Assembly (NCBI GenBank): GCA_025361205.1
Contig: JANYAS010000084.1
Span: 1-64,000 of the forward strand
DNA from: Holophagaceae bacterium
GTDB lineage: Bacteria > Acidobacteriota > Holophagae > Holophagales > Holophagaceae
Reading direction: 5' to 3'
DNA: 64,000 nucleotides
Below are positions 2,611 to 47,846 of this stretch, in pieces. A model generated the notes under the pieces. The model saw only the letters and a program-made list of their open reading frames with translations. It was not told the DNA's origin and did not search any database. How positions within the stretch are numbered: position 1 is the first letter of the stretch; every line of letters starts with the position of its first letter. The translations under genes and the position numbers were made by a program.

Positions 2611-2730
2611 CTTTGTGGCCTTTGTGTTCTTTGTGGCTATTACTCGACAGGGTTGACCGACCCCATGGATTCCAATTGGCCACAAAGAACACAAAGGGCA
2701 AAGATCTGCGCCATCTGCGTTATCTGCGGT
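2611..2730. repeat. Periodic inverted repeat R1 (9-base words)
   Basis: The left arm has CTTTGTG beginning at 2611, 2620 and 2629, a strict 9-base period. The right arm inverts it as CACAAAG at 2681 and 2690. A 19-base perfect stem joins 2619-2637 (CCTTTGTGTTCTTTGTGGC) with 2679-2697 across a 41-base loop. Directly after it comes a second 9-period array, ATCTGCG at 2704, 2713 and 2722, with no inverted partner visible. The element fills the gap between leuD and yicC, both on the minus strand, so it should be transcribed. No coding sense is evident; apparent ORFs through it are translations of the repeat. Confidence 0.85.
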
Positions 2731-2757
2731 TTCACGCTTTTTGCTCGCCAGCTGGTA

Positions 2758-3345
2758 TCAGAGCCAGGGCGTCTCGCGGCTGCGCCGGGCTTCGAAGGCT
2801 TCGATGGCAGGCAGGTTCGCGAGGCTGCGGCCGATCTGGTCGAGGCCTTCGATTAGGGAGGCCTTGCGGGCGGGGTCGATGTCGAAGGGGTGGAGGCGGC
2901 CGGCAACCGCGACCGTCTGGGCTTGAAGGTCCACGGTGAGCGGCCCCGACGCAGCGGCGAGATCTTCGATGGCGGCGATGGGCAGGGCGATGGGCAGGAT
3001 GCCGTTGGCGAAGCAGTTGTTGTAGAAGATGTCGGCGAAGCTGGAGGCGATCACGCAGCGGATGCCGAAGTCCAGCAGGGCCCATGGGGCGTGCTCGCGG
3101 CTGGAGCCGCAGCCGAAATTGGGCCCGGCGAGGAGGATCGTCGCCTGGCGGTAGGGCGCTTGGTTGAGGACGAAGTTTGGTGCCTCGTGACCCTCGTTGT
3201 CATAGCGGAGCTCGGCGAAGAGGTGGCGTCCCAGCCCCGTGCGCACCAGCGTCTTCAGAAACAGCTTCGGGATGATGAGGTCGGTGTCGATGTTGGCCCG
3301 CAGCATGGGCGCCGCGATGCCGGTGAGGGTAGTGAAGGGAATCAT
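2758..3345 (-). CDS. leuD: 3-isopropylmalate dehydratase small subunit
   Basis: A 195-residue LeuD subunit, the swivelling small domain of isopropylmalate isomerase that completes the active site on LeuC for converting 2- to 3-isopropylmalate in leucine synthesis. The diagnostic segments [24 protein letters not shown] and [16 protein letters not shown] are all present, and the length is normal. The ATG overlaps the leuC stop by four bases (3342-3345), indicating translational coupling and a 1:1 complex. It is the last gene of the LysR-leuC-leuD unit. Confidence 0.97.
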
Positions 3346-4760
3346 CGGGCCTCCAGCAGGCGGCGGACATCGGTGAAGTGGCCCATGACCGCCGCGGCGG
3401 CGGCCATCTCGGGGCTCACGAGGTGAGTGCGTCCGCCCCGGCCCTGGCGTCCTTCGAAGTTCCGGTTACTGGTGCTGGCGCAGCGCTCCCCGGGCTCCAG
3501 GCGGTCGTCGTTCATGGCCAGGCACATGCTGCACCCGGGCTGGCGCCATTCGAAGCCCGCCTCCAGGAAGATGCGATCCAACCCCTCGACCTCGGCCTGG
3601 CGCTTGACCAACCCGGATCCGGGGACCACCAGGGCCCGCACGCCCGTGGCCACTTTCCGGCCCAGGGCCACCCGGGCGGCGGCGCGCAGATCCTCGATGC
3701 GGCCGTTGGTGCAGGAGCCGATGAAGACGACCTGGATCGGCACGTCCTCCATGAGGGTTCCGGGTTGCAGGCCCATGTACTCCAGGGCCCGCAGGATGCC
3801 TTCCCGTTCAGCGGCGGAGGGGGCGGTCCCGGGATCCGGCACCTGGCCGGTGATGGCCACCACGGACTCGGGGCTGGTGCCCCAGGTGAGCTGCGGGGCG
3901 AGGTCGCCCACCTCGAGCCGCAGCTCCCGGTCGAAGGTCGCGCCCTCATCCGTGGGCAGGTTGCGCCAGTTTGCGAGGGCTTGCTCCCACAGGGGTCCAG
4001 CCGGGGCCATGGGCCGCCCCTTCATGTAGGCAAACGTGGTGTCGTCGGGCGCCACCAGGCCTGAGCGGGCGCCAGCCTCGATGCTCATGTTGCAAAGGGT
4101 CATCCGCCCTTCCATGGAGAGGGCCCGGACCGCGCGTCCGGCGAACTCCATGACGTGGCCCGTGCCACCGGCGGTGCCGATGCGTCCGATAAGGTATAGG
4201 GCCAGATCCTTGGCGCCGAGGCCGTCGGGCAAGGAGCCCTCGAAGTGCACACGCATGTTCCGGGAATGGCGCTGGGGTAGCGTCTGGGTGGCGAGGACGT
4301 GCTCCACCTCGCTGGTGCCGATGCCGAAGGCCAGGGCGCCAAAGGCCCCGTGGGTGCTGGTGTGGCTGTCACCGCACACCACGGTGGCGCCCGGGAGCGT
4401 GAAGCCCTGCTCGGGCCCGATCACATGGACGATGCCCTGCCGATCGTCGAGGAGGGGCACGTAGGGCACGGCGAAGGCCTGCACATTGGCTTCCAGCGCC
4501 TCCACCTGCAGGCGGCTGGTCGCGTCCGCGATGCCGGCCTCGCGCTTCCGCGTGGGGACATTGTGGTCGGCCACCGAGAGGATGGCCTTGGGGCGCCGCA
4601 GGGGCCGCCCGGCCAGCCGCAGGCCCTCAAAAGCCTGGGGGCTGGTCACCTCGTGGACCAGGTGCCGGTCGATGTACAGCAGGCTGGTACCGTCGCCCCG
4701 GATTTCCACCAGGTGGGCTTCCCAGATCTTGTCGTAGAGGGTGCGGGCGCCAGGGCTCAT
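3342..4760 (-). CDS. leuC: 3-isopropylmalate dehydratase large subunit
   Basis: A 472-residue aconitase-superfamily subunit carrying the [4Fe-4S] cluster of isopropylmalate isomerase. The three cluster cysteines lie in FIGSCTNGR and [23 protein letters not shown] is the substrate-binding segment. I chose the ATG at 4760 because it follows an AAGGAG ribosome-binding site and opens with a typical LeuC N-terminus ([10 protein letters not shown]); the roughly 100 codons upstream are antisense-like and overlap the LysR gene. The start overlaps the LysR gene stop by four bases and the stop overlaps leuD by four, so regulator and both subunits form one tightly coupled unit. Confidence 0.97.
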
Positions 4761-11991: not shown

Positions 11992-12004
11992 ACGAAGGAG
12001 TCCC

Positions 12005-12555
12005 ATGTCCCATGTGCTCGTGATCTACACCGACGATGAACCCGGCGTGCTCACCCGGGTGGCCTCCCTGTTCCGTCGCCGCGGGTTCAATATCCACTCC
12101 CTCACCGTGGGGCCCACCGAGCGCACAGGCGTGTCGCGGATGACTGTGGTGGTGGACACGGACGAGGCCACGGCCCGGCGGGCGGTGGAGCACCTGAAGA
12201 AACTCGTGAACGTCCTCGAGGTGCAGCAACTCGGCCGCAGTCCCAAGGTGATGCGCGACCTGGCCCTGGTGCGGGTCGCCGCCAGCCCGGCCCGCCGCTC
12301 AGAGGTGCTCCAGCTGTGCAGGTGTTCCGCGCGAACGTGGTGGATATCGCCGAGGACAGCCTCGTCATCGAGTGCACCGGCAGCCTCGACAAGATCGAGG
12401 CGCTGGTGGATACCCTTCGCCCTTTCGGCATCCTCGAACTTGGCCGGACCGGGGCCGTGGCCATGGCTCGCGGCCCCCGCTCCGAAGCCTCTATCCACCG
12501 CCTCGCGGCCGCCGCGCCCACCGGCACGGACGGCCCCGAGGCCATGTCCGTCTGA
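12005..12555 (+). pseudogene. ilvH: Acetolactate synthase small subunit, frameshifted
   Basis: The ACT-domain regulatory subunit that confers valine feedback inhibition and boosts IlvB activity. The first frame encodes residues 1-104 (MSHVLVIYTDDEPGVLTRV to RRSEVLQL); the rest continues in another frame from 12316 (VQVFRANVVDIAEDSLVIECTG to the stop at 12553-12555). Inserting one G in CAGCTGTGCAGG near 12314-12318 restores EVLQLVQVF and one ORF of about 183 residues, normal for the family. Without it, frame one runs out of register to 12730, through repeat R2. A GAAGGAG site precedes the ATG. Either a real mutation or a one-base assembly error; both halves look well conserved, favouring an error or a very recent event. 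Confidence 0.85.
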
Positions 12556-12593
12556 TTCCCGAGGATTCTTCCATGACTTCGAAAAGGATTTAC

Positions 12594-12707
12594 CACCAAG
12601 ACACCAAGACACCAAGTGTTCCTTTGTCTCGCGTATCCGCGAAGTGGATACCGAGAAGAACTGCAAAAAGAAGCCCTGGCTTTTCTTGGTGCCTTTGTGC
12701 CTTGGGG
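12594..12707. repeat. Periodic inverted repeat R2 (8-base words)
   Basis: CACCAAG begins at 12594, 12602 and 12610, an exact 8-base period. Inverted words CTTGGTG (12685), CTTTGTG (12693) and CTTGGGG (12701) repeat at the same period. The arms can pair over 23 positions with about four mismatches across a 68-base spacer. The element lies between ilvH and ilvC inside the ilv run. Confidence 0.85.
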
Positions 12708-12765
12708 GTGATCAGTTTCCTTCCCGTTAATCCCTCCATCCCTCTATTCCAATAAAGGAGCCCCC

Positions 12766-13785
12766 ATGGCCATCATCCACTACGACGCCGACCTCGGCCT
12801 CATCCGCGCCCGCAAGGTCGCCATCCTGGGCTACGGTTCTCAGGGCCACGCCCACGCCCTCAACCTGAAGGACAGCGGGGTTCACGTCCGCGTGGGCCTG
12901 CCCGCCGGCTCCGCCTCCCGCGCCAAGGCGGAAGCCCAGGGACTCACCGTGACCACCCCAGCCATGGCCTGCGCCTGGGCGGACGTGATCATGGTCCTTA
13001 CGCCCGACACGGGGCAGGGCGCGCTCTACAAGGAAGACATCGCACCCAACTTGACACAGGGCAAGACCCTGATGTTCGCCCACGGTTTCAACATCCGCTA
13101 CGGCTGGATCGAACCCCCGGCGGGCGTGGACGTGAGCCTGGTGGCCCCCAAGAGCCCCGGCCACCGCGTCCGCGAGGTGTTCCTGGAAGGCGGCGGCACC
13201 CCGGCCCTGGTGGCCGTGCACCAGGACGCCAGTGGGCAGGCCAAGGCGGTGGCCCTGTCCTACGCGGCAGCCCTGGGCCTCACCCGGGCGGGCGTGCTGG
13301 AGACCACCTTCGCGGAAGAGACGGAGACCGACCTCTTCGGGGAGAAGGCCGTCCTCTGCGGCGGGGCCAGCGCCCTGGTGAAGGCCGGCTTCGAGACCCT
13401 GGTCGAGGCCGGCTACCAGCCTGAGATCGCCTACTTCGAGTGCCTGCACGAGCTGAAGCTCATCGTGGATCTCATGTATCGGGGCGGGCTCGGTTTCATG
13501 CGCTACAGCATCAGCGACACCGCAGAGTACGGGGACTACACCGGCGGACCCCGCCTGATCACCGCCGAGACCAAGGCAGAAATGAAAAAGATCCTGGAGG
13601 AGATCCAGGACGGCCGCTACGCCAAGGCCTGGATGGAGGAGAACCGCACGGGCCGCAAGTGGTTCGAGGCCCAGCGGGCGGCCGACCACGACCATCCCAT
13701 CGAAGTGGTGGGCCGCGAGCTGCGCCACATGATGCCCTTCCTCAATCCAGTGGAAGCGCCCGCCCCGGCGCCGAAACAAGCCTGA
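12766..13785 (+). CDS. ilvC: Ketol-acid reductoisomerase
   Basis: A 339-residue class I IlvC, converting acetolactate or acetohydroxybutyrate to the dihydroxy acids used by IlvD, with NADPH and Mg. The N-terminal Rossmann motif is [13 protein letters not shown]; the C-terminal knotted helical domain carries EVEF-like metal ligands in [10 protein letters not shown] and the ECLHELK segment. AAAGGAG precedes the ATG. It is the last gene of the leu/ilv run, separated from ilvH by repeat R2, which may set its level separately. Confidence 0.97.
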
Positions 13786-14225
13786 TCGCCGATTCGGCTC
13801 CACGGGGATGAAGGGCAGTTGGAATCATTTCTTGGTCGGGTTCCCCTCGTTGGGGAGGCTCATTTCCGAGAAAGCATGTCTGCCGGGGAGGACCGGTGAA
13901 AAACGGTGAGGAAGACTGCGCCTTCTCACCGGCCTTCACTGTTCCTCACCGGTATTTTTTCTTTCATTGCCATCCCAATCAGGACACCGAAATTCCGCCA
14001 CAACAACTTGGCCGCGAAATCCCTGGTTTCGATTGCGGGAAAAATGCGGGTGGGAAATCCCTGCCAACACGCGCGGCGACGCTAGGTATTGCTAGGAGTT
14101 CTAGGAGAATTCCTGCATGCAAAACCGGTGTCCTGACTCCGGGTCAAATCATTGATCCCGATAAAGGGAATTTGGGTCCAAAATAGTCAGGTGGCGGGAT
14201 CTATCCCGCGCCTCCGGAGCCACGA
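13786..14225 (+). other. Intergenic region between ilvC and the nitronate monooxygenase gene
   Basis: 440 bases without a convincing gene. It contains repeat R3 (13894-13951), a loose 10-base reiteration GCTAGGTATT, GCTAGGAGTT, CTAGGAGAAT at 14081-14110, and a TGGCGGGATCTATCCCGC inverted segment near 14192-14209 just before the next gene. An ORF at 13896-14186 can be drawn through it but has no family resemblance and a composition set by the repeats. Confidence 0.6.
13894..13964 (+). repeat. Periodic inverted repeat R3 (10-base words), terminator-like
   Basis: CGGTGA occurs at 13894 and 13904; the inverted side has TCACCG or TCACTG at 13926, 13936 and 13946, all at a 10-base period. The outer stem is CGGTGAGGAA (13904-13913) with TTCCTCACCG (13942-13951), followed by GTATTTTTTCTTTC. 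The T-run makes it a plausible intrinsic terminator for ilvC, so this copy of the element type may have been recruited for termination. Confidence 0.7.
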
Positions 14226-15953
14226 ATGACCGAGTCCGTCTTCAACACCGCGTCCTTGCCCACCCTTCAAGGCTGGCAGGCCCCGGGGTCGCTGGACTTC
14301 CAAGCTGCATTTCTGCGGGCCGGTGGCTGGGCGTTGACGCGCACGGAGGCCTTCCCGGATGCCGCCCGGCTGCGGGAGCGGCTCCAGGAACTCCGGGCCT
14401 CCATGCGCGAGGGCGCCAAGATCGGCCTGGACCTGCGCGGCCTGAGGGATAGCGCGGATAGCGTCATGGCCGCCGCCCGCGAGGCCGGTGTGGCCTTCCT
14501 GCTGCATACTGCGGAACTGCCGCCCTCCTTGGCCATGCTCCGCCATGCGAACCTGCCCCGCATCGTGGCAGTCCAGAATGCGGAAGAGGGCGCCCAGGCC
14601 AAGGCCGGTGGCGCTTCGGCCTTGCTGGCCGGGGCGGGCATCGTGGCCGCCCTCCGCTCCCTGGGCCTGCCCGTGATGGCCTACGCGGATACCGAGGCCG
14701 AAGCAAAACAGGCCATGGCCGACGGCGCCATTGGCCTCCAGCCCCGGACACCTTCCCTTCTGGATGCCTCGCCATTAGCGGCCTTTCGGGGGCGCCTGAT
14801 GGCCGGCCTCGATTCCATGGCCCAGGCCTTCATCCGCCGTGGGGACTGCACCCTGCCGCGCCTGCGCATCCGGAACCTCGACCTGGCCTATCCCATCCAA
14901 CAGGGCGGGATGGGTGTGGGCATTTCTTGGGAGGGCCTGGCTGGCGCCGTGGCCAAGGCCGGCTGTGTGGGCTTGGTGTCAGCCATCGGCACGGGCTACC
15001 ACGGCTCGGCCAACCCGACGATGCGCCTGGGCCGCCCCGATGGCAGTGACTCGTTGAATCCCCCTAAGGCCCTGGAATGGATCATCCGCGCGGCCCGAGA
15101 GCGCTCCGAGGGCCGTGGGGCTGTGGGTGTAAACATCCTATGCGCCATCGAGGGCTATGAATCCGCCGTGCGGGCCTCCCTCGCGGGTGGCGCGCAGATG
15201 ATCGTCTCTGGGGCGGGCCTGCCCCTCGCGCTGCCTGGTTATGTGGGCGACGCGGACGTGGCCCTGGTGCCCATCGTGTCCTCGGGCCGCGCCCTGAGCG
15301 TCATCTGCAAGCAGTGGCAGCGCAAGTACAACCGCCTGCCGGATGCCGTGGTGCTGGAAGGCCCCGAAAGCGGCGGCCACCAAGGGTTCAGCCATGACGG
15401 CTGCCTGGATCCGGCCCACACCCTGGAGAACATCCTGCCTGAGGTGATCGCGGAACGGGACAACTGGGGCGACTTCCCCATCCTGGTGGCCGGCGGCGTC
15501 TGGGACCATGCGGACATCCAGCGTTTCCTCGCCCTGGGCGCGGCGGGCGTGCAGATGGGCACCCGCTTCATCGGCACCTTCGAGTGCGATGCCTCCCCGA
15601 TCTTCAAGGAAGTGATCCTCCGCGCCAAGGCCGAGGACATCGGCCTCATGAAGTCCCCTGTGGGCCTGCCCGCTCGCGGTGTGCGGACCAGCCTCCAGCG
15701 GCGCATCGAGGCCGGCACGGCGCCCCAGATCCGCTGCGTGAGCAACTGCCTGTCGCCCTGCGGCCACGGCAAGGGCGCGGCCGCCGTGGGGTACTGCATC
15801 GCCGACCGCCTGGCCGACGCCATGCGCGGCGACGAGGAGAGCGGTCTCTTCTTCACCGGCAGTAACGGCGCCAAGCTGCGCGATCTCATCAGCGTCCGCG
15901 ACCTCATCGAAGAACTGACCCAGGATCCGGGCCTGCAACGACTGTACGCCTGA
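14226..15953 (+). CDS. Nitronate monooxygenase family protein with extra N-terminal domain
   Basis: A 575-residue flavoprotein. Residues about 215-575 form an FMN-binding TIM barrel of the 2-nitropropane dioxygenase/NMO family, with PIQQGGMGVG, the GHQGFS segment holding the usual catalytic-histidine region, and GGVWDHADIQRFLALGAAGVQMGTR-type phosphate-binding strands. The first about 210 residues are additional to the roughly 350-residue core; they read as alternating helices and short strands (for example KIGLDLRG, VAFLLHT, RIVAVQN, LPVMAYAD), suggesting a second, degenerate half-barrel. CVSNCLSPCGHG near residue 505-516 is cysteine-rich. A PfaD-type enoyl reductase role is less likely because no polyketide genes are near. 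The substrate is unknown. Confidence 0.85.
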   Translation: MTESVFNTASLPTLQGWQAPGSLDFQAAFLRAGGWALTRTEAFPDAARLRERLQELRASMREGAKIGLDLRGLRDSADSVMAAAREAGVAFLLHTAELPPSLAMLRHANLPRIVAVQNAEEGAQAKAGGASALLAGAGIVAALRSLGLPVMAYADTEAEAKQAMADGAIGLQPRTPSLLDASPLAAFRGRLMAGLDSMAQAFIRRGDCTLPRLRIRNLDLAYPIQQGGMGVGISWEGLAGAVAKAGCVGLVSAIGTGYHGSANPTMRLGRPDGSDSLNPPKALEWIIRAARERSEGRGAVGVNILCAIEGYESAVRASLAGGAQMIVSGAGLPLALPGYVGDADVALVPIVSSGRALSVICKQWQRKYNRLPDAVVLEGPESGGHQGFSHDGCLDPAHTLENILPEVIAERDNWGDFPILVAGGVWDHADIQRFLALGAAGVQMGTRFIGTFECDASPIFKEVILRAKAEDIGLMKSPVGLPARGVRTSLQRRIEAGTAPQIRCVSNCLSPCGHGKGAAAVGYCIADRLADAMRGDEESGLFFTGSNGAKLRDLISVRDLIEELTQDPGLQRLYA

Positions 15954-15960
15954 AGGTCTC

Positions 15961-16935
15961 TCAACCCGCGTTCGGATGCCGCTCCAGCAGCTGCCGAAGG
16001 ACGGCGTTGCGCTTGACTACATCCTGACGGCGGAGGTGGGCGATGAGCTGGGGTGGGGCGGCGCTCCAACGGGCGATGTTCTGGATGAACAGGGTGGAGA
16101 CATAGGTACGGCGGCACAGGATGGCGGTCGTGTGGCCGTCGATAGTGATGCCGACCAGACTCGCGAGGCAGCGGCCCTCCGTGGTGAGGATGAGCTCCGC
16201 CCGCTCCTCGCTCGCCCGTTGGTTGAAGCTGGTCCGCAGCAGATCCCGGGCCATGGCGCGGAGCTGCTCCGGGGCATCCCGCGACATGGCCACGAGGTAC
16301 TGCTCCAGGAGGCGCTTCGGGGACCATAGACGCCGGTAGAGGCCGAGCGGCAGGAGCGGATTCTGCAGCAGGGCGCGGCGGACGCCCTCATCGTTAGTGA
16401 AGGCCGGATGTGCGCCCAGGGCCTCCAGGCCTGCCGCAGTACGATGGTGTGCCGCGATGAGGCGGGCGTGGACCAGGCCCGTCCGCTGGTTCTCCATTAC
16501 GGAGCGGATGACTTCTGCCGTGGGGTCAAAGCAGAAGGCGCTCAGGTCAGGCTCGGCTGCCCCGCGGGCCCGTGCCACGCGCTGGTCCATGGGCTGCGCA
16601 TGCAGGTGCAGCTCAAATAGCTGGCGATGGGTCGTGGTCCTGTTGCGGGCAGTGGGTGTATCTTCCCCTTCGATTTCCGCCTCAGCCTCGAAGGGTGCTT
16701 CCTCCTGGGATGACGTGGGGAAGGCTGCCGCCTGGGGCCACTCAGGGGCCACCGCGCCCAAGGTGACCAGTTCATCGAGCATGCCGGCCACCTGGTCTTC
16801 CCCCAGGTTGATGAGCACCGCCAGGGTTGGGACGTCCACGCTCCCATCCAGCCGCGACAACAGGTAGCCCTGCAAGGGGTTGAGGGGCAGCGTGAGGGGA
16901 TCCACCCCCTCCTGGGGACTGGGCTTCCAGGTCAT
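15961..16935 (-). CDS. Conserved-looking hypothetical protein with N-terminal winged-helix-like region
   Basis: A 324-residue soluble protein I do not recognise. Residues 12-62 (LTLPLNPLQGYLLSRLDGS onward, then DQVAGMLDELVTLGAV) resemble short winged-helix 'how is the gene product divided' modules seen at the start of many myxobacterial and acidobacterial regulatory proteins. A charged low-complexity linker (about 75-100) follows, then an all-helical region (about 105-324) with repeated LL/AL pairs that may be helical repeats. It has no signal peptide. It lies downstream of radA on the same strand with a 65-base gap and converges on the monooxygenase gene with seven bases between stops. Confidence 0.6.
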   Translation of the reverse strand: MTWKPSPQEGVDPLTLPLNPLQGYLLSRLDGSVDVPTLAVLINLGEDQVAGMLDELVTLGAVAPEWPQAAAFPTSSQEEAPFEAEAEIEGEDTPTARNRTTTHRQLFELHLHAQPMDQRVARARGAAEPDLSAFCFDPTAEVIRSVMENQRTGLVHARLIAAHHRTAAGLEALGAHPAFTNDEGVRRALLQNPLLPLGLYRRLWSPKRLLEQYLVAMSRDAPEQLRAMARDLLRTSFNQRASEERAELILTTEGRCLASLVGITIDGHTTAILCRRTYVSTLFIQNIARWSAAPPQLIAHLRRQDVVKRNAVLRQLLERHPNAG

Positions 16936-17000
16936 GGGTTGAGGGTAAAGCCGAACGGGGATGAGGGCATCACGAGAATCCCAAACGGACTGAATAGGCC

Positions 17001-18365
17001 CTACTCCTCCACCACGCCCTTCAGCCAGGCCTTGCTCCGCAACCGCTCGACACTCACTTCAGGGAAGAGGTCGAGGGGGCTCTTGCCTTCGAGCCCGAGG
17101 CGGGGCACGGCGGCGCGGGCGAAGCCCAGGCGGGCGCCTTCCTGAAGGCGCAGGGGCAGTTGGGCCACGGGGCGCACTTCGCCCGTGAGGCCCACCTCAC
17201 CCATGAAGAGGCACTTCTCGGCCAGCAGGCGACCCCCAGCGCTACTGCAGAGGGCGGCGATGACGGCGAGGTCGGCGGCGGGGTCCTCGATCTCCAGGCC
17301 ACCTGCCACGTTCAGGTAGATGTCCCGGTCATGGAGCTGCACGCCGCCACGGCGCTCCGCCACCGCGCAAAGCATGGCGAGGCGCTGCGAGTCGATGCCC
17401 AGGGCCGTGCGCCGGGGGATGCCCAGGCCTGCGGAAGCCACCAGCGCCTGGATCTCCACCACCATGGGCCGAGTGCCGCTGAGGACCACGGTGGCGGCGC
17501 AGCCGGGCCGGGGTTCGGCGTCCAGGAAGAAGGGGTTCCCTTCGGCCGTTACCAGGCCTCGCTCGGTCATGGCGAAGACGCCCAGCTCGAAGGCCGCGCC
17601 AAAGCGGTTCTTGAGGGTCCGCAGCAGGCGGTGGTGGTGGTGCCGGTCGCCCTCGAACGAGAGCACCGTGTCCACCAGGTGCTCCAGCACCTTGGGGCCC
17701 GCCAGGCTCCCGTCCTTGGTGACGTGGCCCACCAATACCAGGGGCGTGGCTGTCGTTTTGGCCCAGCGGGTGAGCAGGGCCGCACAGCCGCGCACCTGGC
17801 TCACGCTGCCCGCGCTGCTTTCGAAGTCGGGATCGAACAGCGTCTGGATGCTATCCACCAGCAACAGATCAGGCTTCATGCGCTCGGCTTCTTCGAGGAT
17901 GCGACGCACATCCGTCTCCGCCAGCAGATGGATACCGGGGTTCTCGGCCCCCAGCCGCTGGGCGCGCAGTTTGATCTGGCGCTCGCTTTCCTCGCCGCTG
18001 GCGTAGAGCACCGTGCCGGTGGTGGTGGCCGCCCATTGCAGCAGCAGGGTGGACTTGCCAATGCCCGGTTCGCCGCCCAGCAGGGCCACCATGCCCGGCA
18101 CCACCCCGCCCCCCAGCACCCGATCCAGTTCAATGATGCCGGTCGGGGCCCGCTGGGTGTCCGTCACATCCACGTCGGGCAAAGCTATCGGGCCGGTGTA
18201 GTGGCTCTGGGCGTAGGCCGACCCGGCCCGCTGGAGGTCCCGTTTCAGGGATCCACGCACTTCCTGCACAGTGTCCCAGGCGCCACAGCCGGTGCATTTC
18301 CCCATGGCCTTGGGATGCCGCACGCCGCAGGCCGTGCACTCGAATAGAGATGTCGTCTTGGCCAT
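17001..18365 (-). CDS. radA: DNA repair protein RadA (Sms)
   Basis: A 454-residue branch-migration helicase paralogous to RecA. The N-terminal zinc finger is C-x2-C, then C-x2-C (FECTACG and KCTGCGAWD). Walker A is GGEPGIGKST, the family-specific KNRFG motif is present in TLKNRFGAAFE, and the C-terminal third is the Lon-protease-like domain. The ATG at 18365 gives MAKTTSLFECTACG, typical of RadA; an in-frame codon at 18395 would add ten residues of unrelated sequence. Repeat R4 lies just upstream. Confidence 0.96.
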   Translation of the reverse strand: MAKTTSLFECTACGVRHPKAMGKCTGCGAWDTVQEVRGSLKRDLQRAGSAYAQSHYTGPIALPDVDVTDTQRAPTGIIELDRVLGGGVVPGMVALLGGEPGIGKSTLLLQWAATTTGTVLYASGEESERQIKLRAQRLGAENPGIHLLAETDVRRILEEAERMKPDLLLVDSIQTLFDPDFESSAGSVSQVRGCAALLTRWAKTTATPLVLVGHVTKDGSLAGPKVLEHLVDTVLSFEGDRHHHHRLLRTLKNRFGAAFELGVFAMTERGLVTAEGNPFFLDAEPRPGCAATVVLSGTRPMVVEIQALVASAGLGIPRRTALGIDSQRLAMLCAVAERRGGVQLHDRDIYLNVAGGLEIEDPAADLAVIAALCSSAGGRLLAEKCLFMGEVGLTGEVRPVAQLPLRLQEGARLGFARAAVPRLGLEGKSPLDLFPEVSVERLRSKAWLKGVVEE

Positions 18366-18414
18366 CAGACACCATGCCTTGTGTGGGTACCGCATGCAAG
18401 AAAAGCCTGGAACC

Positions 18415-18530
18415 GCGAAAGGACGTGAAAGGGCGCGAAAAGGTTGCGGGAATGGGCCGTCTGGACACTGGGGCGGAAGGATACCTGATCACTTTTCGCG
18501 CGCCCGAAGGGCGTTTCGCGCTTTTCGCGG
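18415..18530. repeat. Periodic inverted repeat R4 (10-base words)
   Basis: GCGAAAGGAC, GTGAAAGGGC and GCGAAAAGG start at 18415, 18425 and 18435, an exact 10-base period. The inverted arm has CTTTTCGCG at 18492 and, again 10 bases apart, TTTCGCG ending at 18520 and 18529 (GCGTTTCGCG, CTTTTCGCGG). It fills the gap between the radA start and the mutase subunit stop, both on the minus strand. Confidence 0.8.
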
Positions 18531-18542
18531 TTAGCTTTCATG

Positions 18543-18941
18543 TCAGGCCGAAATCTCGCGCTGGATGAAAGCCACGATGTCGTCGGTGTTCGTTCCGGGC
18601 TGGAAGATTTCCCGGATGCCGGTGGCCTTGAGGGCGGGGATGTCCTCATCAGGGATGATGCCGCCGGCGAAGACCAGCACGTCGTCGGCGCCCTGTTCCT
18701 TCAACAGCCGCATCACCTCGGGAAAGATCTGGTTATGGGCGCCACTGAGGATGCTCATGCCCAGCACGCGGGCATCCTCCTGCACCACGGCGGCCACGAT
18801 CTGTTGGGGCGTCTGGCGCAGGCCGGTGTAGATGACCTCCATACCCGCGTCGCGCAGGGCCCGGGCCACGACCTTGGCGCCGCGGTCGTGCCCGTCGAGG
18901 CCTGGCTTGGCGATGACGACACGGATGGGGGCTTGGCTCAT
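18543..18941 (-). CDS. Methylmalonyl-CoA mutase B12-binding subunit
   Basis: A 132-residue stand-alone cobalamin-binding domain. DGHDRGAKV (about residues 16-24) supplies the D-x-H-x2-G motif whose histidine ligates cobalt; GGIIPDEDI is the nucleotide-tail segment. It corresponds to the C-terminal domain that many mutases carry fused. The catalytic partner without this domain is encoded at 57790-59445, so the two should form a split enzyme interconverting succinyl- and methylmalonyl-CoA. ATG at 18941 opens with [18 protein letters not shown]; upstream in-frame codons lack family resemblance. Confidence 0.93.
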
Positions 18942-19059
18942 GGAGGCTCCAAGGAATTGAGGACCGCTACAGAATAGCCAGTGTTCTTCTGGCTGTTCTG
19001 GTTGGGACCCATACGCCATCTGTGCTTGGGCATAGATTGGGCCGTTGCGCAACGACGGC

Positions 19060-19515
19060 TTACCAGTCCTGAGCCTGCCTCAGTGCTTCGTAAAGGCCAA
19101 TGGCCGCGGCCTGGGCCAGGTTCAGGCTGCGGTGGTGGTCCCCCAACATGGGGATGCGCACGAGGCTGTCAGGGTGGGCGGTCAGGATCTCATCCGGAAG
19201 TCCCACGGTCTCCCGGCCAAAGACCAAGCCGTCGCCATGGGCCCAGGCCACCTGGGTGTGGCGCCGGGCGCCCTTGGTGCTGAAGAACCACAGGCGCTTG
19301 GCGGGGTTGCGGGCGAGGAAGTCGTTCCAGTCAGCGTAGTGCGTCGGTTCGAGCTTCTCCCAGTAGTCCAAGCCCGCCCGGCGCAGGTAGTAGTCGGTGG
19401 TCTCAAAGCCCAGGGGATGAATCAGATGCAGCTGGACGCCATTGTTCACGCAGAGCCGGCCGATGCTTCCGGTATTCTGCGGAATCTCCGGTTGGTGCAG
19501 GATGATGTGGAACAT
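19060..19515 (-). CDS. trmL: tRNA (cytidine/uridine-34 2'-O)-methyltransferase
   Basis: A 151-residue SPOUT methyltransferase that modifies the wobble nucleotide of leucine tRNAs in Escherichia coli. The start [20 protein letters not shown] is diagnostic of TrmL, and [14 protein letters not shown] plus the C-terminal IPM...[15 protein letters not shown] form the SAM-binding trefoil knot. I set the start at 19515, not at upstream in-frame codons, because of this match. Its ATG is only 12 bases from the divergent HIT gene ATG, so both share a tiny control region. Confidence 0.94.
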
Positions 19516-19527
19516 GGGAGGTCCCTG

Positions 19528-19875
19528 ATGAGCGAATGCCTGTTCTGCAAGATCGCGCGGAAGGAGATCCCTTCGGCCATCGTATACGAAGACGATACCC
19601 TGCTCGCCTTCAAGGACATCTTCCCCCAGGCGCCGGTCCATCTCCTCATCATTTCCAAAGCCCACTGTCAGGGGTTGGGCGACCTGACGCCGGAAACCGC
19701 CGCTGCGGCCGCCCGGATCCCCCAGGTGGCCGCGCAGCTCGCAGCGGACCAGGGCGTCGGGACCAGCGGCTGGCGCCTGCTCAGCAACTGCGGCGCGGAC
19801 GCGGGCCAGTCTGTGGCCCACCTCCACTTTCACCTGCTCGGTGGGAAGCCTTTGGGCGGCAAGCTCTGCCAGTAG
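19528..19875 (+). CDS. HIT family (HINT-like) hydrolase
   Basis: A 115-residue histidine-triad protein. The HxHxH motif is HLHFHLLGG near the C-terminus, and the opening MSECLFCKIARKEIPS with two cysteines is typical of bacterial HINT proteins, which hydrolyse adenosine phosphoramidates. The ATG at 19528 has GGGAGG about seven bases upstream; in-frame codons farther left overlap trmL. The physiological substrate is not known for most relatives. Confidence 0.94.
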   Translation: MSECLFCKIARKEIPSAIVYEDDTLLAFKDIFPQAPVHLLIISKAHCQGLGDLTPETAAAAARIPQVAAQLAADQGVGTSGWRLLSNCGADAGQSVAHLHFHLLGGKPLGGKLCQ

Positions 19876-19911
19876 CCGTGGGGCTGGTGCCCAGGAAAGG
19901 GGCTCCCTAGC

Positions 19912-21222
19912 TCATTTCCCCATGGTCGCGAACATTCCCACCGACACGGCTGCCATGGCCAGCGTGGCGCCCCAGCCCAGAATCTTTAGCCGCAGGGAGA
20001 GGGTGAAGGTTCCCATCACTTTCTTCCGGCTGGCCATGAGCATGATCATGACCATGAGGGGGGCGGCCACCACGCCGTTCGTGACGGCGCTCCAGAACAG
20101 GGCCTTTACGGGATCCAGATGCACCTCATTCAGGCCGACGCCCAGCAAGGTCGAGAGGGCGATGACCCAGTAGAACGCCCGGGCCTCCTTGGGCTTCCGT
20201 TCCAGGCCCACAGGCCATTGGCGGGCTTCTCCCAGGGCGTAGGCCGAAGACCCGGCCAGGACAGGCACGGCCAGGAGTCCGGTGCCGATGATGCCCAGGC
20301 TGAACAGCAAGAATGCGAACCGTCCCGCCACCGGACGAAGGGCTTCCGCGGCCTGGCTGGAGGTTTGAATGTCCTTGATCCCGTGGGCGTTCAGGACCAC
20401 GGCGGCGGTGAGGATGATGAAAAAGGCCACGACATTGGAGAACGCCATGCCCACCCAGGTATCCGTCTGCATGGTCGAAAGTTGGTCCGGTGCCTGCTCA
20501 GGGGCCTTGAGCAGGGGGGACTCCCCGGGATTCAATTTCTGTTCCTCGACTTCTTCGGAGGCCTGCCAGAAGAACAGGTAGGGACTGATGGTGGTCCCGA
20601 AAATGGCCACGATGGCGGTGAAGGATTCCTTGGTGAGCTGGAAATGAGGAAGCAAGGTGGCGTGGAGGACGCTCAGCCAAGGAATCTTCACCACGAAGAG
20701 AATGCCCACGTAGGCGAAGAGCCCCAGGCAGAGCCATTTCAGGTAGGGAACATAACTGCGGTAGGGAATAAATATCTGCAGCAGGAGGCAGAGCAGGCCG
20801 AATCCCACGACATAGATCTGGGCGGGTCCGCCGATCAGCAGGTGCAACGCCGCGCCCATGGCTCCGATATCCGCGCCAATGTTGATGGTGTTGGCCACCA
20901 GGAGCAGGCCGATGGCGGCATAGAGCACCCATGCCGGAAAATGCTTCCGGAGGCTGGCAGCTAAGCCGTGGCCCGTGACCCGACCCACCCTGGCGCTGAT
21001 TTCCTGGATGCCACTCATCAAGGGGTACGAAAACACCATGGTCCACAACATGCCTAAGCCGAATTGGCTGCCCACCTGGGAGTAGGTGGCAATGCCGCTG
21101 GGGTCATCATCGGAGGCCCCTGTGATGAGGCCAGGGCCAATCCGGGCCAAGAGCCCGCGTTTGGGGGCGCCGGCCGCGGGGGGTGGGGCCGAGGAGTGCC
21201 GGTCAAAGACGGATCGTCGCAT
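19912..21222 (-). CDS. Nramp-family metal transporter, divergent motifs
   Basis: A 436-residue integral membrane protein with about 11 hydrophobic segments of the Nramp (SLC11) fold. The TM1 metal-binding motif is DDDPSGIATY in place of the classic DPGN, and TM6 reads FGTTISPYLFFWQ without the MPH motif that prefers Mn or Fe. Family knowledge says these positions set metal choice, so the ion here should not be assumed to be manganese. The insert EEVEEQKLNPGESP after TM6 is characteristic of this divergent clade. It converges with the HIT gene and faces mraZ. Confidence 0.85.
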   Translation of the reverse strand: MRRSVFDRHSSAPPPAAGAPKRGLLARIGPGLITGASDDDPSGIATYSQVGSQFGLGMLWTMVFSYPLMSGIQEISARVGRVTGHGLAASLRKHFPAWVLYAAIGLLLVANTINIGADIGAMGAALHLLIGGPAQIYVVGFGLLCLLLQIFIPYRSYVPYLKWLCLGLFAYVGILFVVKIPWLSVLHATLLPHFQLTKESFTAIVAIFGTTISPYLFFWQASEEVEEQKLNPGESPLLKAPEQAPDQLSTMQTDTWVGMAFSNVVAFFIILTAAVVLNAHGIKDIQTSSQAAEALRPVAGRFAFLLFSLGIIGTGLLAVPVLAGSSAYALGEARQWPVGLERKPKEARAFYWVIALSTLLGVGLNEVHLDPVKALFWSAVTNGVVAAPLMVMIMLMASRKKVMGTFTLSLRLKILGWGATLAMAAVSVGMFATMGK

Positions 21223-21612
21223 GAGGGATTTCCGTGGAAGGGCAGGGTTAGGGAAATCCTAACGATGCGCTCCTCGTCAAGGGGTGCTCCATGGAGGCGA
21301 GGCCCCGGGGTGGTTTGGGGGCGAGGCTGGCTGTCCCTCGCTTTCGGCTTCCTCTCTGGCCGGTCGGTTGCGGCACTTCCGACTGTGCATAGGCCCATGG
21401 GTGGTCGGAAGTGGCAGTTGAATGCCGCTGGATGGCTTATTCGACTGGCGGCAGCCGGGAAGCATCGTATTTTATTCGCCTATAAGTTGGGCCATTCAAT
21501 GAAAGCACCCGCACCACCACTATGAAATCGGATGAATCACCTAAAAGAAGACAGGCAATGATATTCGTTTATATTTCCGCTTGTCGAGTTTCATTACCTT
21601 TCTAGACTTTGA
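21223..21612 (+). promoter_or_regulatory. Long intergenic region upstream of the dcw cluster
   Basis: About 390 bases with no credible gene. A 10-bp perfect inverted repeat, CACTTCCGAC (21374-21383) and GTCGGAAGTG (21404-21413), has a 20-base loop. The stretch 21465-21600 is AT-rich; a candidate promoter is TTGTCG (21581-21586), 16 bases, TAGACT (21603-21608), which would place the start of transcription within the MraZ boxes. The promoter call is tentative. Confidence 0.45.
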
Positions 21613-21657
21613 AGTGGCTCCCAGTGGAGAAAAGTGGTCTGAAGTGGATGAAAGTGG
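21613..21657 (+). promoter_or_regulatory. Five-box MraZ operator
   Basis: AGTGG begins at 21613, 21623, 21633, 21643 and 21653: five direct copies at an exact 10-base spacing, one helical turn. MraZ of other bacteria binds short direct repeats spaced by about 10 bases just upstream of its own gene (TGGGA boxes in Escherichia coli, AAAGTG-type boxes in mollicutes). Position, spacing and core sequence all fit autoregulation of this cluster. Confidence 0.8.
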
Positions 21658-21710
21658 TCTTGCTTTGGTTCATGGCTCTCTTTTGGGGTGCTGGTTGAAA
21701 GGTGCTGCTG

Positions 21711-22175
21711 GTGCTGCGACTTCGCGGAAACTCACCGGCCACGGTGGATGAAAAGGGACGCCTGAAACTCCCCTCATCCTTCAAGGCCGAGTTGGAATCC
21801 TTCGCCAAGGGTGAAGAAGGCGGAGCTCTGCGGCACTACCTGACCTCCCTGGATGGCCGATCCGCACGCCTCTATCCCATGCCGATCTGGGAAGCCATCG
21901 AAGTCCGGCTCGCGGCCCTGCCGTCCACCAGCCCCGCCAAGCGGAAGTTCCTGGAGACCACCGCCTATTTCGGCAGCGAGGTGGAGCCCGATGCCCAGGG
22001 CCGCTTCGTCATACCGCCCATCCTGCGCGAGGCCGCCCAGCTCACGGGCGAAGTGGCCGTGCTGGGGCAGATGGATCACCTGGCCCTGTGGAACAAGGCC
22101 GGCTTCGAGCGCCGTCTTACGGCCGAGCCCCTGGGCGCCGATGATCTGGCCCAGCTCGCGGACCTGGGGATCTGA
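21711..22175 (+). CDS. mraZ: Transcriptional regulator MraZ
   Basis: A 154-residue protein with two SpoVT/AbrB-like halves; each carries the DEKGR or DAQGR signature (ATVDEKGRLKLP and EPDAQGRFVIP). MraZ forms a ring that binds direct repeats and regulates the dcw operon. I prefer the GTG at 21711 (MLRLRGN) because GAAAGG lies about nine bases before it; a GTG at 21702 is too close to that site. The gene overlaps rsmH by one base (TGATG). Confidence 0.94.
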   Translation: MLRLRGNSPATVDEKGRLKLPSSFKAELESFAKGEEGGALRHYLTSLDGRSARLYPMPIWEAIEVRLAALPSTSPAKRKFLETTAYFGSEVEPDAQGRFVIPPILREAAQLTGEVAVLGQMDHLALWNKAGFERRLTAEPLGADDLAQLADLGI

Positions 22176-23134: not shown

Positions 23135-23146
23135 ATCGAGGTCCCC

Positions 23147-23515: not shown

Positions 23516-23768
23516 TTGGGCTGTGGGCGGTAGTCTGTGGGCTGTAGGCGGCCGTTCGGCCCTGATCGGCCGCTCAGCGCCCGAGCGCTGCCAGTTGGAA
23601 CCAAAACCTGGGTTTTTCCTACTACCCACTACCCACTGCCCATAGCCCAGGGCCCAGTAGGCGGTAGGCTGTAGGAAGGCCGTTCGGCCTCCGGGGCCGA
23701 GGCCGGACGATCGTTGGAACCTCGGTTTTCTTTCCCACGGCCCACAGCCTAAAGGCCACAGCCCACCC
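23516..23768. repeat. Periodic inverted repeat R5, tandem double element (7-base words)
   Basis: Forward heptamers CTGTGGG, CGGTAGT, CTGTGGG, CTGTAGG occupy 23521-23548. After GGCCGTTCGGCC and a spacer, inverted heptamers CCCACTA, CCCACTG, CCCATAG, CCCAGGG run at 23625-23652. A second unit follows at once: CAGTAGG, CGGTAGG, CTGTAGG at 23655-23675, GGCCGTTCGGCC again, then CCCACGG, CCCACAG, CCTAAAG, GCCACAG, CCCACCC at 23734-23768. Both units also share GTTGGAACC followed by a GGTTTT segment in the spacer, so this is a duplicated element. Every word step is exactly seven bases. It ends at the base before the ftsI GTG start. Confidence 0.88.
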
Positions 23769-27376: not shown

Positions 27377-27424
27377 ATCTCTGCGCTTCTCAAAATCCTG
27401 AACCAGAGGTTTGGCTTGATCTTG

Positions 27425-27500
27425 ATCGGTGTTCATCGGTGTTCATCGGTGGTTCAAAAGATCCTTTTTCCACCGATGAACACCGATGCACACCGATAAA
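27425..27500. repeat. Periodic inverted repeat R6 (10-base words)
   Basis: ATCGGTGTTC-type words start at 27425, 27435 and 27445; CACCGATGAA, CACCGATGCA and CACCGATAAA start at 27471, 27481 and 27491. Both arms have a 10-base period. CATCGGTGTTCATCGGTGG (27434-27452) pairs perfectly with 27470-27488 across a 17-base loop. It lies between murE and tsaC, within the dcw transcript. Confidence 0.88.
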
Positions 27501-27572
27501 ACAAGATGATTCGCTGGCTACGGTTCTGCGGAAGAGCGCCTCCCGGAAGAGCCGCGACCCCAGAGGCCACCG

Positions 27573-44794: not shown

Positions 44795-44816
44795 GCGCTA
44801 CCCGGATTCCAGGGGG

Positions 44817-44849: not shown

Positions 44850-44895
44850 TCAGCGTTCGGCCGGATAGAAGGGACGAGCGTGTCGTCCACCGCCG

Positions 44896-45861: not shown

Positions 45862-45966
45862 GAGGATCTCCAATATCTGAGTTCATGGAGGAAAGTCCAC
45901 TTCCGGCCTAATAGAACAAGTTGCCGAACCAGGCGCCGGCTCAGGCGAGCTGGGTTGAACGAAGGG

Positions 45967-46311: not shown

Positions 46312-46380
46312 GGAGGACTCCAAATGCGGGCTGACGATCAATCTGGCGAAACAGGGGGGTGAGAAGTCGGGCGCTGGGGA

Positions 46381-47672
46381 TCAGCCCCACACGCGCTTAC
46401 CGCTCACCCACGTACCGAGGACCTTGCCGGGAAGGCTCCAGCCCTTGAAAGGGGTGTTGTAGGACCTGGACTGGATGAAGGCGCGGTCGATCAGGACCTG
46501 TGTATTCGGGTCGAAGAGGACGAAATCGGCGGGAGCGCCGGGCTGGAGGCTGCCGAGGCCTTGACGGTCGAGGTGGAAGGCCTTGGCGGGTTCCCAGGCG
46601 AGGAGGCTGATGGCCTTCGACAGGCTGATGATCTTGCGGTTCACCAGCAGCTCGAGCGTGAGGGGCAGGGCGGTCTCCAGGCCGATGACACCGAAGGCGG
46701 CGATGGGCAGTTCCACCTCTTTGTCGTCCCAGCCGTGCGGGGCGTGGTCCGTGGCGATGGCGTCCACGGTGCCGTCGGCAATGGCCTCCAGCAGGGCCTG
46801 GATATCAGCCTCGGTGCGCAGGGGCGGGTTCATCTTGAAGTCGCTGTCGAACTTCATCAGCTCCTTGTCCGACAGGGCAAAGTGATGGGGCGTCACCTCG
46901 CAGGTGACATTCAGGCCGCGGGCCTTGGCCTCGCGCACCATGCGCAGGGAGCCCTTGGTGCTGAGGTGGGCCAGGTGCAGGTGGCCGCCGGTGTGTTCCG
47001 CCAGCACGATGTCCCGGGCCACCATGGCCTCTTCGGCCGCCGCCGGGATGCCCAGGCAGCCCAGGGCCGCACTCACGGCCCCTTCATGCATGTAGCCCTT
47101 GCCCGCCAGGTCCAGGTCCTCCTCGTGGGCCACCACGGGCACATCCAGCCAGCGGGTGTATTCCAGGGCCCGGCGCATGAGGGATGCGTTGCTGATGGGC
47201 AGGCCGTCGTCCGAAAAGGCCACGCAGCCCGCCGCCTTCAAGGTGCCCATGTCCGCCAGTTCCTCGCCCTTCATTTCGCGGCTCACGGTGCCAATGGGAA
47301 AGTAGCGGCAGAGGTCGGCCTTGGCGGCCCGCGTGAGCATCATCTCCGTGATGGCCACGCTGTCATTCACGGGCTTGGTGTTCGCCATAGCGCACACGGC
47401 CGTGAAGCCACCGGCCACCGCCGCGCGACAACCGGTTTCGATGCTCTCTTTGCGCGTCTGGCCCGGCTCGCGGAAGTGCACATGGAGATCCACGAAGCCC
47501 GGGGCCAGGACCGCGCCACCACCGTCCAGGATCTCCATTCCCTCGCGCTTCGGAAGGGCCGCCGCGTCCATGGCGATGGCTTGCACCTTCCCGTCCACCA
47601 CAAGCAGCACGCCCGGACCATCGAGATTCTGCGAGGGATCACAAGGTGGACGTTCTTCACGAGGAGGGACAT
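46381..47672 (-). pseudogene. pyrC: Dihydroorotase, one-base frameshift near the start
   Basis: A class I dihydroorotase of about 430 residues, catalysing the third step of pyrimidine synthesis. Metal-binding DLHVHFREPGQTRKE, the HEEDL histidine and ATDHAPHG are present. The natural start is ATG at 47672 (MSLLVKNVHLVIP, GGAG upstream), but after IP the frame changes. Adding one C to the CCC run (GGG at 47635-47637 on plus) gives VIPSQNLDGPGVLLVVDGK and joins the rest. As given, only an internal GTG at 47610 yields a 409-residue ORF lacking the first beta-strand. Real mutation or short-run sequencing error. Confidence 0.88.
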
Positions 47673-47716
47673 GGGAGGCTCCGGGGGTGGGGACAGTCTA
47701 GCGGGGGATGAAGCTT

Positions 47717-47846
47717 GGAGTCTGGAGTCTGGAGTCTGGAGACTGGAGACTGGAGGCACAGATTCCTGAGGCGGCGCTCCGCGCCGCTGCCTTCCTCTAA
47801 CGTGCAGGCCGCAGGCCTGCGCGCCCTCCAGACTCCAGACTCCGGA
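47717..47846. repeat. Periodic inverted repeat R7 (7-base words)
   Basis: GGAGTCT starts at 47717, 47724 and 47731, then GGAGACT at 47738 and 47745, a 7-base period. Inverted CTCCAGA words start at 47826 and 47833, then CTCCGGA at 47840. An 18-bp perfect stem forms between 47717-47734 and 47826-47843. The spacer contains two GC palindromes, GCGGCGC-TCC-GCGCCGC (47771-47787) and GCAGGCC-GCA-GGCCTGC (47804-47820). It lies between pyrC and guaB on the minus strand. Confidence 0.87.

What the first reader, a model, noticed from the sequence alone, without database searches (positions are those of the whole stretch)
2611..47846. Seven intergenic elements share one architecture: periodic words with matching inverted arms
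R1 (2611-2730), R2 (12594-12707), R3 (13894-13964), R4 (18415-18530), R5 (23516-23768), R6 (27425-27500) and R7 (47717-47846) each have two to five tandem copies of a short word at a fixed period (7 for R5 and R7, 8 for R2, 9 for R1, 10 for R3, R4, R6), a spacer, then the reverse complement of the same word at the same period. The word is unrelated between elements, but within an element the arms match. All seven lie between co-directional genes, several inside operons. Sequence homology alone would not group them; only the plan is shared. Arm matching with word diversity suggests a copying process, such as template-switch correction of quasi-palindromes, keeps the arms alike. They may act on RNA stability or set expression of the downstream gene. 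I cannot say whether this class has been described.
Basis: seen in the sequence. Interest (0 to 1): 0.8.

Follow-up and report, generated by a model that had tools for sequence, protein, structure and literature searches.

The report
Dispersed hairpins built from shared words
The seven hairpins belong to a large set of short DNA repeats, made of a few recurring 7- to 10-letter words, that are scattered between genes in this bacterium; some of the same words turn up in the same form in distant bacteria and even archaea, so they look like small spreading elements whose carrier is still unknown.

Summary
The seven elements are real hairpins, but not seven unrelated words. They sample dispersed palindromic repeats whose arms are tandem 7-10-nt words from a limited lexicon. 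The R6 word occurs 105 times in this genome (up to 2 mismatches; reversed control 0). An exact two-armed version occurs in 53 stretches of a collection of 84,980 genomes, from many phyla and Methanosarcinales archaea. Orthologous gaps in the genus are empty or filled, sometimes with a different word in the same gap. Some elements are copied whole, loop and flanks included, and small hairpins are nested in some. In an ANME-2c archaeon the same hairpin is the core of a 247-bp MITE (exact 8-bp target duplication in 17 of 28 copies). The bare elements show no target duplication, and seven genomes of this genus lack the REP transposase domain. Arms probably match mainly because elements are inverted dimers of one word type: in the MITE copies arms change independently, though one locus looks concerted in two of three species. 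Closest kind: REP/REPIN repeats. New variant of a known kind; what spreads it is unknown.

The parts
2611..2700 (.). R1: inverted arrays of CACAAAGAA (period 9), loop 41; the GTGG-side ends face the loop
   Evidence: RNA fold -45.6 kcal/mol, z -6.66; 16-mer of the word 20 times in this genome
2704..2728 (.). half element beside R1: three words ATCTGCGNN (CGCAGAT type) without a matching second arm nearby
   Evidence: listed among arrays without partner
12592..12709 (.). R2: inverted arrays of CACCAAGA (period 8)
   Evidence: word 15-mer 25 times in this genome; fold z -4.78
12627..12656 (.). small dispersed hairpin TCTCGCGTATC..GATACCGAGA nested in the loop of R2; five similar ones in L066, L122 (two), L126 and L130
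   Evidence: (6 hits in 605,710 bases, Markov 0)
13894..13964 (.). R3: CGGTGANNAA (period 10) hairpin; right end CACTGTTCCTCACCGGTA also in L131:3585-3657
   Evidence: fold z -3.96; below the detectors' thresholds
18411..18532 (.). R4: AACC + CGCGAAAGGN-type hairpin; right arm interrupted by a mini-hairpin CGCCCGAAGGGCG
   Evidence: (z -5.53); absent in 11 of 11 genus genomes recovered at this gap (13 rows)
23516..23768 (.). R5: two units of heptamer array (GGGCTGT type) - GGCCGTTC..GTTGGAACC.. core - inverted heptamer array
   Evidence: related elements in 3 of 18 orthologous gaps (G171, G169, G174); word recurrence weak
27422..27500 (.). R6: inverted arrays of ATCGGTGTTC (period 10) between a Mur ligase gene (murE-like) and a Sua5 gene
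   Evidence: fold z -10.76
47716..47848 (.). R7: inverted arrays of GGAGTCT (period 7) with inner hairpins; loop similarity to L058, L073, L129 and L060
   Evidence: fold z -9.18

Best explanation
The elements are REP/REPIN-like dispersed palindromic repeats. The unit is one arm, often ACC followed by two to five copies of an 8-10-nt word (or a heptamer array), usually present as an inverted dimer that folds into a hairpin. Dimers are copied to new intergenic sites as whole units, receive other small hairpins, and can be carried inside ordinary transposons (shown in an ANME-2c archaeon). The words change number by slippage of whole units. Some of the words occur in scattered genomes of many phyla and of archaea, which I read as horizontal spread. 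Shown: recurrence, copying of some elements, nesting, presence/absence at orthologous gaps, unit-length gain and loss, cross-domain sharing of the R6 word, no target-site duplication for the bare elements, no Y1 transposase domain in seven genomes of this genus. Inferred: that an active (probably single-strand, hairpin-recognising) process moves them, and that they are near-neutral in operons, where they separate genes without obvious harm.
For: Recurrence: R6 word 105 matches (control 0), R1 word 20, R2 word 25 in this genome. Cross-phylum: 53 stretches with the exact two-armed R6 pattern (about 0.03 expected in 257 Gb of uniform random sequence, my arithmetic); R1 word in 10 of 40 genomes (controls 0) and R2 word in 9 of 40 (controls 1 hit in all); R6 arm in 20 of 199 genomes of one bacterial phylum and 3 of 246 of an archaeal phylum, controls 0. 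Copying: four dispersed copies sharing outer flanks, arms and loop (L074, L068, L122, L127), two of them with extra small hairpins and one with an extra word; L131:3380, L131:4470 and L125:665 regions; a family of about 150-176 b in Rhodospirillales MAG G205 (11 of 14 loci gave a full copy by my pattern, flanks unlike by eye). Presence/absence. Unit gain and loss. No TSD in G000 (43 + 6 elements) or G205 (11) while the MITE control is positive.
Against: No mobilising enzyme was found: PF01797 has no hit in G000, G171, G169, G027, G053, G065 or G040, and I searched for no other enzyme. Of 33 loops of 30 b or more in G000, 19 have no second match in the sample at E 0.01, and part of the other 14 match only through leftover words, so for many elements copying is not shown. 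Not all arrays are dimers: 14 pairs and 11 single arrays of the R6 word by pattern; of 141 arrays of any word 68 have an inverted partner and 73 do not, but Markov sequence gives 50 arrays. No very close pair of genomes with a clean new insertion was found, so active movement is inferred. In the ANME-2c case the mover is the surrounding MITE, which could mean that the elements never move by themselves. No match to an Azospirillum R2-type element in the plasmid collection or to R6 in phages (BLAST's low-complexity filter may hide matches).
Confidence: 0.55

Rival explanations
1. Passengers or ends of ordinary DDE-transposon MITEs: the word hairpins are the inner or terminal inverted repeats of miniature transposons, and all spread is by those transposases.
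For: In G199 the hairpin is the centre of a 247-bp MITE with 8-bp target duplications (17 of 28 full copies exactly 8, one more with 6); four copies in G000 share about 30-40 b of outer sequence beyond the word arms, whose two ends are partly inverted copies.
Against: Several places in related archaeal MAGs match only the hairpin part of the MITE, about query positions 77-149 (for example G209:C100, G209:C26, G217:C211, G219:C20), and G316 and G378 carry hairpins but have 0 and 1 weak MITE match. No excess of direct repeats at the edges of 49 G000 elements or 11 G205 copies, although old duplications may have decayed. Outer shared sequence was seen for few G000 elements (six regions tried).
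Confidence: 0.17
2. Local origin and upkeep: slippage makes a tandem word and template switching at quasi-palindromes copies it to the other arm and keeps the arms alike.
For: Arms 40/41 alike within G171 and within G169 but 35-37/41 between them at the R6 gap; matching subtype in 14 of 14 paired arrays; within-element similarity above permuted partners in the two largest families (biased); unit-length gains and losses.
Against: The same words in many phyla and two domains; some whole elements with loops are copied; arms change independently in 28 MITE copies and at the R5 gap of G171; G166 arms only 31/41 alike.
Confidence: 0.12
3. Convergent, selected RNA or DNA motif: hairpins with these words do a job (mRNA end protection, protein binding), so unrelated genomes evolved them.
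For: Strong folds of the six elements folded; intergenic placement; same words in distant phyla.
Against: Patchy: strict pattern in 3 of 149 own-phylum genomes, single arm in 20 of 199 and 3 of 246; absent from most orthologous gaps compared in the genus; alike loops in G205, G199 and G316 copies point to descent; no Rfam family in the window.
Confidence: 0.1

Closest known systems
REP / REPIN repeats with RAYT (Y1 HUH) transposases (Bertels and Rainey 2011, PMC3116915, abstract and outline seen; PMC2817692, search listing only)
   Same: Dispersed, intergenic, inverted dimers forming hairpins, many copies per genome; insertion without target duplication (the last is recalled for REPs).
   Different: Arms are tandem words of 7-10 nt rather than one 20-40-bp palindrome with a GTAG tag; seven genomes of this genus lack any Y1_Tnp match; some words are shared across phyla and domains.
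GTAG- and CGTC-tagged REPs and TIR families (PMC3733652, passages seen)
   Same: Palindromic repeats spread over several phyla; CGTC REPs without a dedicated transposase (that paper's statement).
   Different: Tags were not searched for here; arms are tandem words.
TAACTGA direct heptamer repeats of Beggiatoaceae, Cyanobacteria and Bacteroidetes (MacGregor 2015, PMC4679880, abstract and introduction seen)
   Same: One short word repeated in tandem between genes, shared by distant groups, suspected horizontal transfer with no known mechanism.
   Different: Direct arrays (169 sets and one indirect repeat in that abstract); a single word.
MITEs of bacteria and archaea
   Same: The 247-bp G199 element has terminal inverted repeats and 8-bp target duplications.
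   Different: In G000 and G205 no target duplication; arms are word arrays.
Long simple sequence repeats / heptamer SSRs (described in the PMC4679880 introduction; PMC6749651, passages seen)
   Same: Units of 7-10 nt, copy number changes by whole units.
   Different: Here mostly paired, inverted, dispersed as families; few copies per array.

Membership tests
REPIN (RAYT-mobilised REP dimers) | dispersed intergenic palindromes present as inverted dimers | tested here: met
   with single arrays too
REPIN (RAYT-mobilised REP dimers) | a RAYT / Y1_Tnp (PF01797) gene in the host genome | tested here: not met
   0 of 7 genus genomes; 4 of 12 genomes overall, G205 among them, G202 not
REPIN (RAYT-mobilised REP dimers) | GTAG/GGAG-type unpaired tag at the foot of the hairpin | not tested
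   not searched; the recurrent outer end seen is ACC
REPIN (RAYT-mobilised REP dimers) | insertion without target-site duplication | tested here: met
   43 + 6 G000 elements and 11 G205 copies, no excess of direct repeats; MITE control positive
MITE of a DDE transposon | terminal inverted repeats with fixed-length target duplication | tested here: not met
   not met for G000 and G205 elements; met for the larger G199 element that contains the hairpin
Intrinsic terminator | GC-rich stem followed by a T run | tested here: inconclusive
   10 terminator-like sites in 12,000-28,000 against 8.7 in shuffles; one overlaps R4 (18516) and one lies just before R6 (27398); R1 and R7 not scanned
Known structured RNA (Rfam 15) | match to a covariance model at gathering score | tested here: not met
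   0 matches in the window
Template-switch quasi-palindrome | arms change together within an element | tested here: inconclusive
   for: (2 of 3 species); against: (R5)

The most novel reading that the evidence does not exclude
A pan-prokaryotic class of dispersed hairpin repeats, not found described as one class in my searches, uses a small shared lexicon of 8-10-nt words in Bacteria and Archaea. It spreads between and within genomes without target duplication and, in this genus, without the REP transposase domain, by a carrier not yet identified, and can ride inside MITEs. The same intergenic slot can exchange one lexicon word for another.
Probability: 0.45. Interest if true: 0.8.

Novelty: new variant of a known kind. 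Interest (0 to 1): 0.64.

Why it matters
If right, the same short words mark small spreading elements in organisms as far apart as Acidobacteriota, Planctomycetes, Azospirillum and methane-oxidising archaea, which asks for an enzyme or process that acts across domains on tandem-word hairpins. The genus here, with 47 genomes held, no Y1 transposase domain in the seven tested and empty and filled slots at the same gene junctions, is a good place to look for it. It also warns against reading matched arms in one genome as local template switching.

Tried and rejected
Rejected or limited: (1) unrelated words per element: contradicted (R5 only weakly). (2) RAYT/REPIN membership: no Y1_Tnp in 7 of 7 genus genomes. 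(3) TSD for bare elements: none; the G205 copies instead show an excess of inverted flank similarity (5.45 against 4.54, 2 of 400 shuffles), G000 does not. (4) Plasmid and phage routes: no match for an Azospirillum R2-type element in plasmids or R6 in phages; two Azospirillum loci with flanks gave plasmid hits, but no record covered 80% of the query, so no empty site was read (25 rows listed of 28 and 174 records). (5) R7 word as an exact 22-mer: only in G000 (1 of 40 genomes), so heptamer sharing across phyla is not shown by exact match. (6) The arm test is biased, because the detector requires matching arms; one search uses word patterns only. (7) The three detections L075:5394, L133:4488 and L133:18865 looked like GC-rich coding chance hits and were dropped; of 33 MITE loci, 5 were not full length and were dropped; 3 of 14 G205 loci gave no full copy by my pattern. 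(8) In one search, 13 of the 20 own-genome stretches came from contigs chosen because one search had hits there, so the 53 detections in 605,710 bases overstate density; the first batch gave 13 in 260,071. (9) The first R6 gap lengths of 0 were negative distances; one search gives the real junctions. An earlier count said 15 of 19 (R6 junctions) and 18 of 28 (8-bp TSD); the right counts are 14 of 19 and 17 of 28. (10) Literature: eight searches listed no paper that I recognised as describing this class; one search searched six literal word strings and returned one unrelated paper. The library is open-access only.
Full report
What was checked. The seven elements are in the sequence as described. 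Detectors asking for a tandem word at a fixed period and its inverted copy nearby found 3, 2 to 4 by threshold and 5 of the 7, while order-3 Markov sequence of the same length gave about 0 to 1. R3 and R4 were below threshold but fold far better than shuffles (R5 was not folded). The pattern is real and not chance.

Where the window is. It is contig C66 of a 3.13-Mb, 190-contig genome. Its genus has 47 held genomes, this one included. One of them, G040, has a contig of 46,924 bases, the length of JAJYRN010000020.1, titled 'Acidobacteria bacterium isolate DX1.bin12', so the host is probably an acidobacterium; a Geothrix-like Holophagaceae is my guess from recall.

The words recur. In this genome the R6 word occurs 105 times with up to 2 mismatches (reversed control 0), often as two inverted arrays 10-150 bases apart; the R1 16-mer 20 times and the R2 15-mer 25 times. 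In 605,710 bases of own sequence (partly chosen for hits) 53 elements were detected, at least three of them coding-like chance hits. They fall into a few types: CAC.GATGAA, CGCAGATGA, CACAAAGAA, CACCAAGA/CGCCAAGA, CGGTGATGAA, CGCGAAAGG, ACAGGATGA, and the heptamers GGAGTCT and GGGCTGT. Word counts exceed Markov for all, clearly so except GGGCTGT (3 against 1.0) and, less strongly, GGAGTCT (15 against 3.0). The 8-10-nt words resemble one another (CRC, then purine-rich; my reading). Arrays often begin with ACC before the first word.

Some are shared across the tree. An exact two-armed R6 pattern occurs in 53 stretches of a collection of 84,980 genomes: Phycisphaerae, Kuenenia, Desulfococcaceae, Desulfobulbaceae, Azospirillum, Acetobacteraceae, Anaerolineales, Nitrospiraceae, Verrucomicrobia, Lentisphaerae, Aquiflexum, Acidobacteria and Methanosarcinales among the record titles (most are MAGs). 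The elements are alike beyond the pattern, for example ATCTGTGTTCATCTGTGGTT, a T- or A-rich loop, AACCACAGATGAACACAGAT. A single-arm pattern is in 3 of 246 genomes of the archaeal phylum; in two of them (G316, G378) one contig holds nearly the whole assembly. It is in 20 of 199 of the phylum of a Phycisphaerae genome. Reversed controls were 0 in both. On the archaeal MAG contigs nine ORFs were scanned: one matches gas-vesicle GvpD and three DUF7287, which I take (recall) as consistent with an archaeal host; one matches the bacterial-type GlpX fructose bisphosphatase, and the rest are not telling. The R1 word is in 10 of 40 and the R2 word in 9 of 40 genomes tried (the 40 were mostly chosen for carrying the R6 word; controls 0 and 1 hit). 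The R7 22-mer is only in G000. The distribution is patchy, from one to dozens of copies where present.

Gaps compared within the genus (by eye; for R6). R1 gap, 15 relatives: 6 empty (83-95 b), 1 short without arrays (G076), 7 with a word hairpin of five kinds (CACAAAG in G185 and G178; CACGAAGG in G142 and G154; CACCAAG in G133; CGCGAAAGG in G150; CACAGATT in G173), 1 long gap not classified (G161). R2 gap, 16 relatives: 2 longer (G161, G173) with CGCCAAG in both arms (the printed list was partly cut; lengths). R3 gap, 18: 1 with a word hairpin (G142, CACCAGGG). R4 gap, 11 genomes (13 rows): none. R5 gap, 18: 3 with two-armed elements (G171, G169, G174); the other 15 are 48-78 b long, some with one or two heptamers (GGCTGTAGGCTGTGGG in G173) but no second arm. 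R6 junction, 19: in 14 the two genes abut with an NTGA stop/start overlap (my reading of the letters), in 3 (G171, G169, G166) a word hairpin separates them as in G000, in 2 (G178, G076) there is other DNA. So elements come and go, and one gap holds different lexicon words in different species.

Evidence of copying. In G000 four loci share about 40 b of left flank, the arms, the loop and about 30 b of right flank; L068 and L122 differ from L074 by inserted small hairpins, and L122 has one more word. The small hairpin, CTCGYGTATC..GATACCGAG, is itself dispersed (6 hits, Markov 0) and also sits in the loop of R2. L131:3380, L131:4470 and L125:665 are another copied set. R7-type elements share some loop sequence. 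But 19 of 33 loops of 30 b or more have no second match in the sample, and some matches are only leftover words. In Rhodospirillales MAG G205, 11 of 14 loci gave aligned copies of about 150-176 b that share arms and an inner GCGCCGCAGGCAT hairpin but, by eye, not flanks. Two G316 copies share their loop.

The archaeal MITE. In ANME-2c genome G199 the hairpin is the middle of a 247-bp element with ends GAGACTTTTTAAT. Of 33 loci read, 28 were full length; 17 have an exact 8-bp target duplication and one has 6. In these copies the left word array varies at 0.050 per site against 0.022-0.028 for loop, right array and flanks, with whole-unit losses and gains. The variable letter of the second left word differs in 9 of 28 copies and in none in its right partner; in two copies (L219, L249) a third right-arm word changed. 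So in this setting arms are not kept alike by frequent copying.

How the bare elements insert. The edges of 43 period-8-10 and 6 heptamer elements in G000 and 11 copies in G205 show no excess of direct repeats, while the same test is strongly positive for the MITE (26 copies). G205 flanks show some inverted similarity (2 of 400 shuffles). This fits single-strand, REP-type movement, or decay of old duplications. The Y1 transposase domain is absent from all 7 genus genomes tried and from G202 but present in G205, G109, G200 and G193. I did not test other enzymes.

Arm matching. Arms agree in word subtype in 14 of 14 paired arrays found by pattern alone (12 C-type, 2 other; Fisher p 0.011), with 11 arrays unpaired. 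An arm's own partner is its best match in only 12 of 47, although within-element similarity beats permuted partners in the two largest families (biased towards matching). At R6 the long arms of G171 and G169 look concerted (40/41 within, 35-37/41 between), G166 does not (31/41). At R5 of G171 the two arrays carry different heptamers. Common descent of the dimer explains most of this; occasional conversion is possible.

Setting and function. Forty-six of 50 elements lie outside called ORFs; the other four sit inside calls, two of them R1 and R2, where I judge the call to be over-extended. Divergent gaps are fewer among elements (6 of 41 against 52 of 185), not tested. The six elements folded are stable as RNA. 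Rfam has no match. No function is shown; insertion between abutting murE-like and sua5 genes suggests tolerance inside an operon.

Literature. Eight searches found related kinds but nothing that I recognised as this class: REPINs (PMC3116915, abstract and outline), tagged REPs in 8 phyla (PMC3733652, passages), TAACTGA direct repeats in distant groups (PMC4679880, abstract and introduction), prokaryote satellites (PMC6749651, passages), intrastrand triplex repeats (PMC4666352, passages) and an inverted-repeat census (PMC13155455, passages). Only open-access papers were searched.

Verdict. New variant of a known kind; interest 0.64.

Noticed in passing
window 12005-12730: The ORF that contains R2 starts like an acetolactate synthase small subunit (ACT-type, by eye, no family search) but from about residue 105 its product no longer resembles what I read from the relatives' DNA, and it runs on through R2; looks like a frameshift or assembly error. 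Not mended.
   Followed up: partly
G199 copies, e.g. L214, L232-L251: A 247-bp MITE family with 8-bp target duplications, 40 strong places listed in one ANME-2c genome (the search scored 40) and diverged copies in other Methanosarcinales MAGs.
   Followed up: partly
window 12627-12656; L066:4557, L122:3777 and 3827, L126:525, L130:12650: A second, small dispersed hairpin family (CTCGYGTATC..GATACCGAG) in this genome, found nested in R2-type elements.
   Followed up: partly
L098, L099, L106, L107 (gap upstream of the ortholog of window 14226): In four related species (G076, G185, G177, G178) the R3 gap holds another palindrome, GGAATCTTGAATTCTTCAAGATTCC (L099 reads TTTATC in place of TTCTTC).
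   Followed up: no
L078, L081, L082, L084, L090, L094, L095: GC-rich, coding-looking hits of the detector in relatives, e.g. GGCGGCCCTGGCGGCC; probably false positives.
   Followed up: no
G200:C1:11999-12085: A Planctomycetaceae genome has one long direct array of CACCAAGA (10 overlapping hits) with no inverted hit listed on that contig.
   Followed up: no
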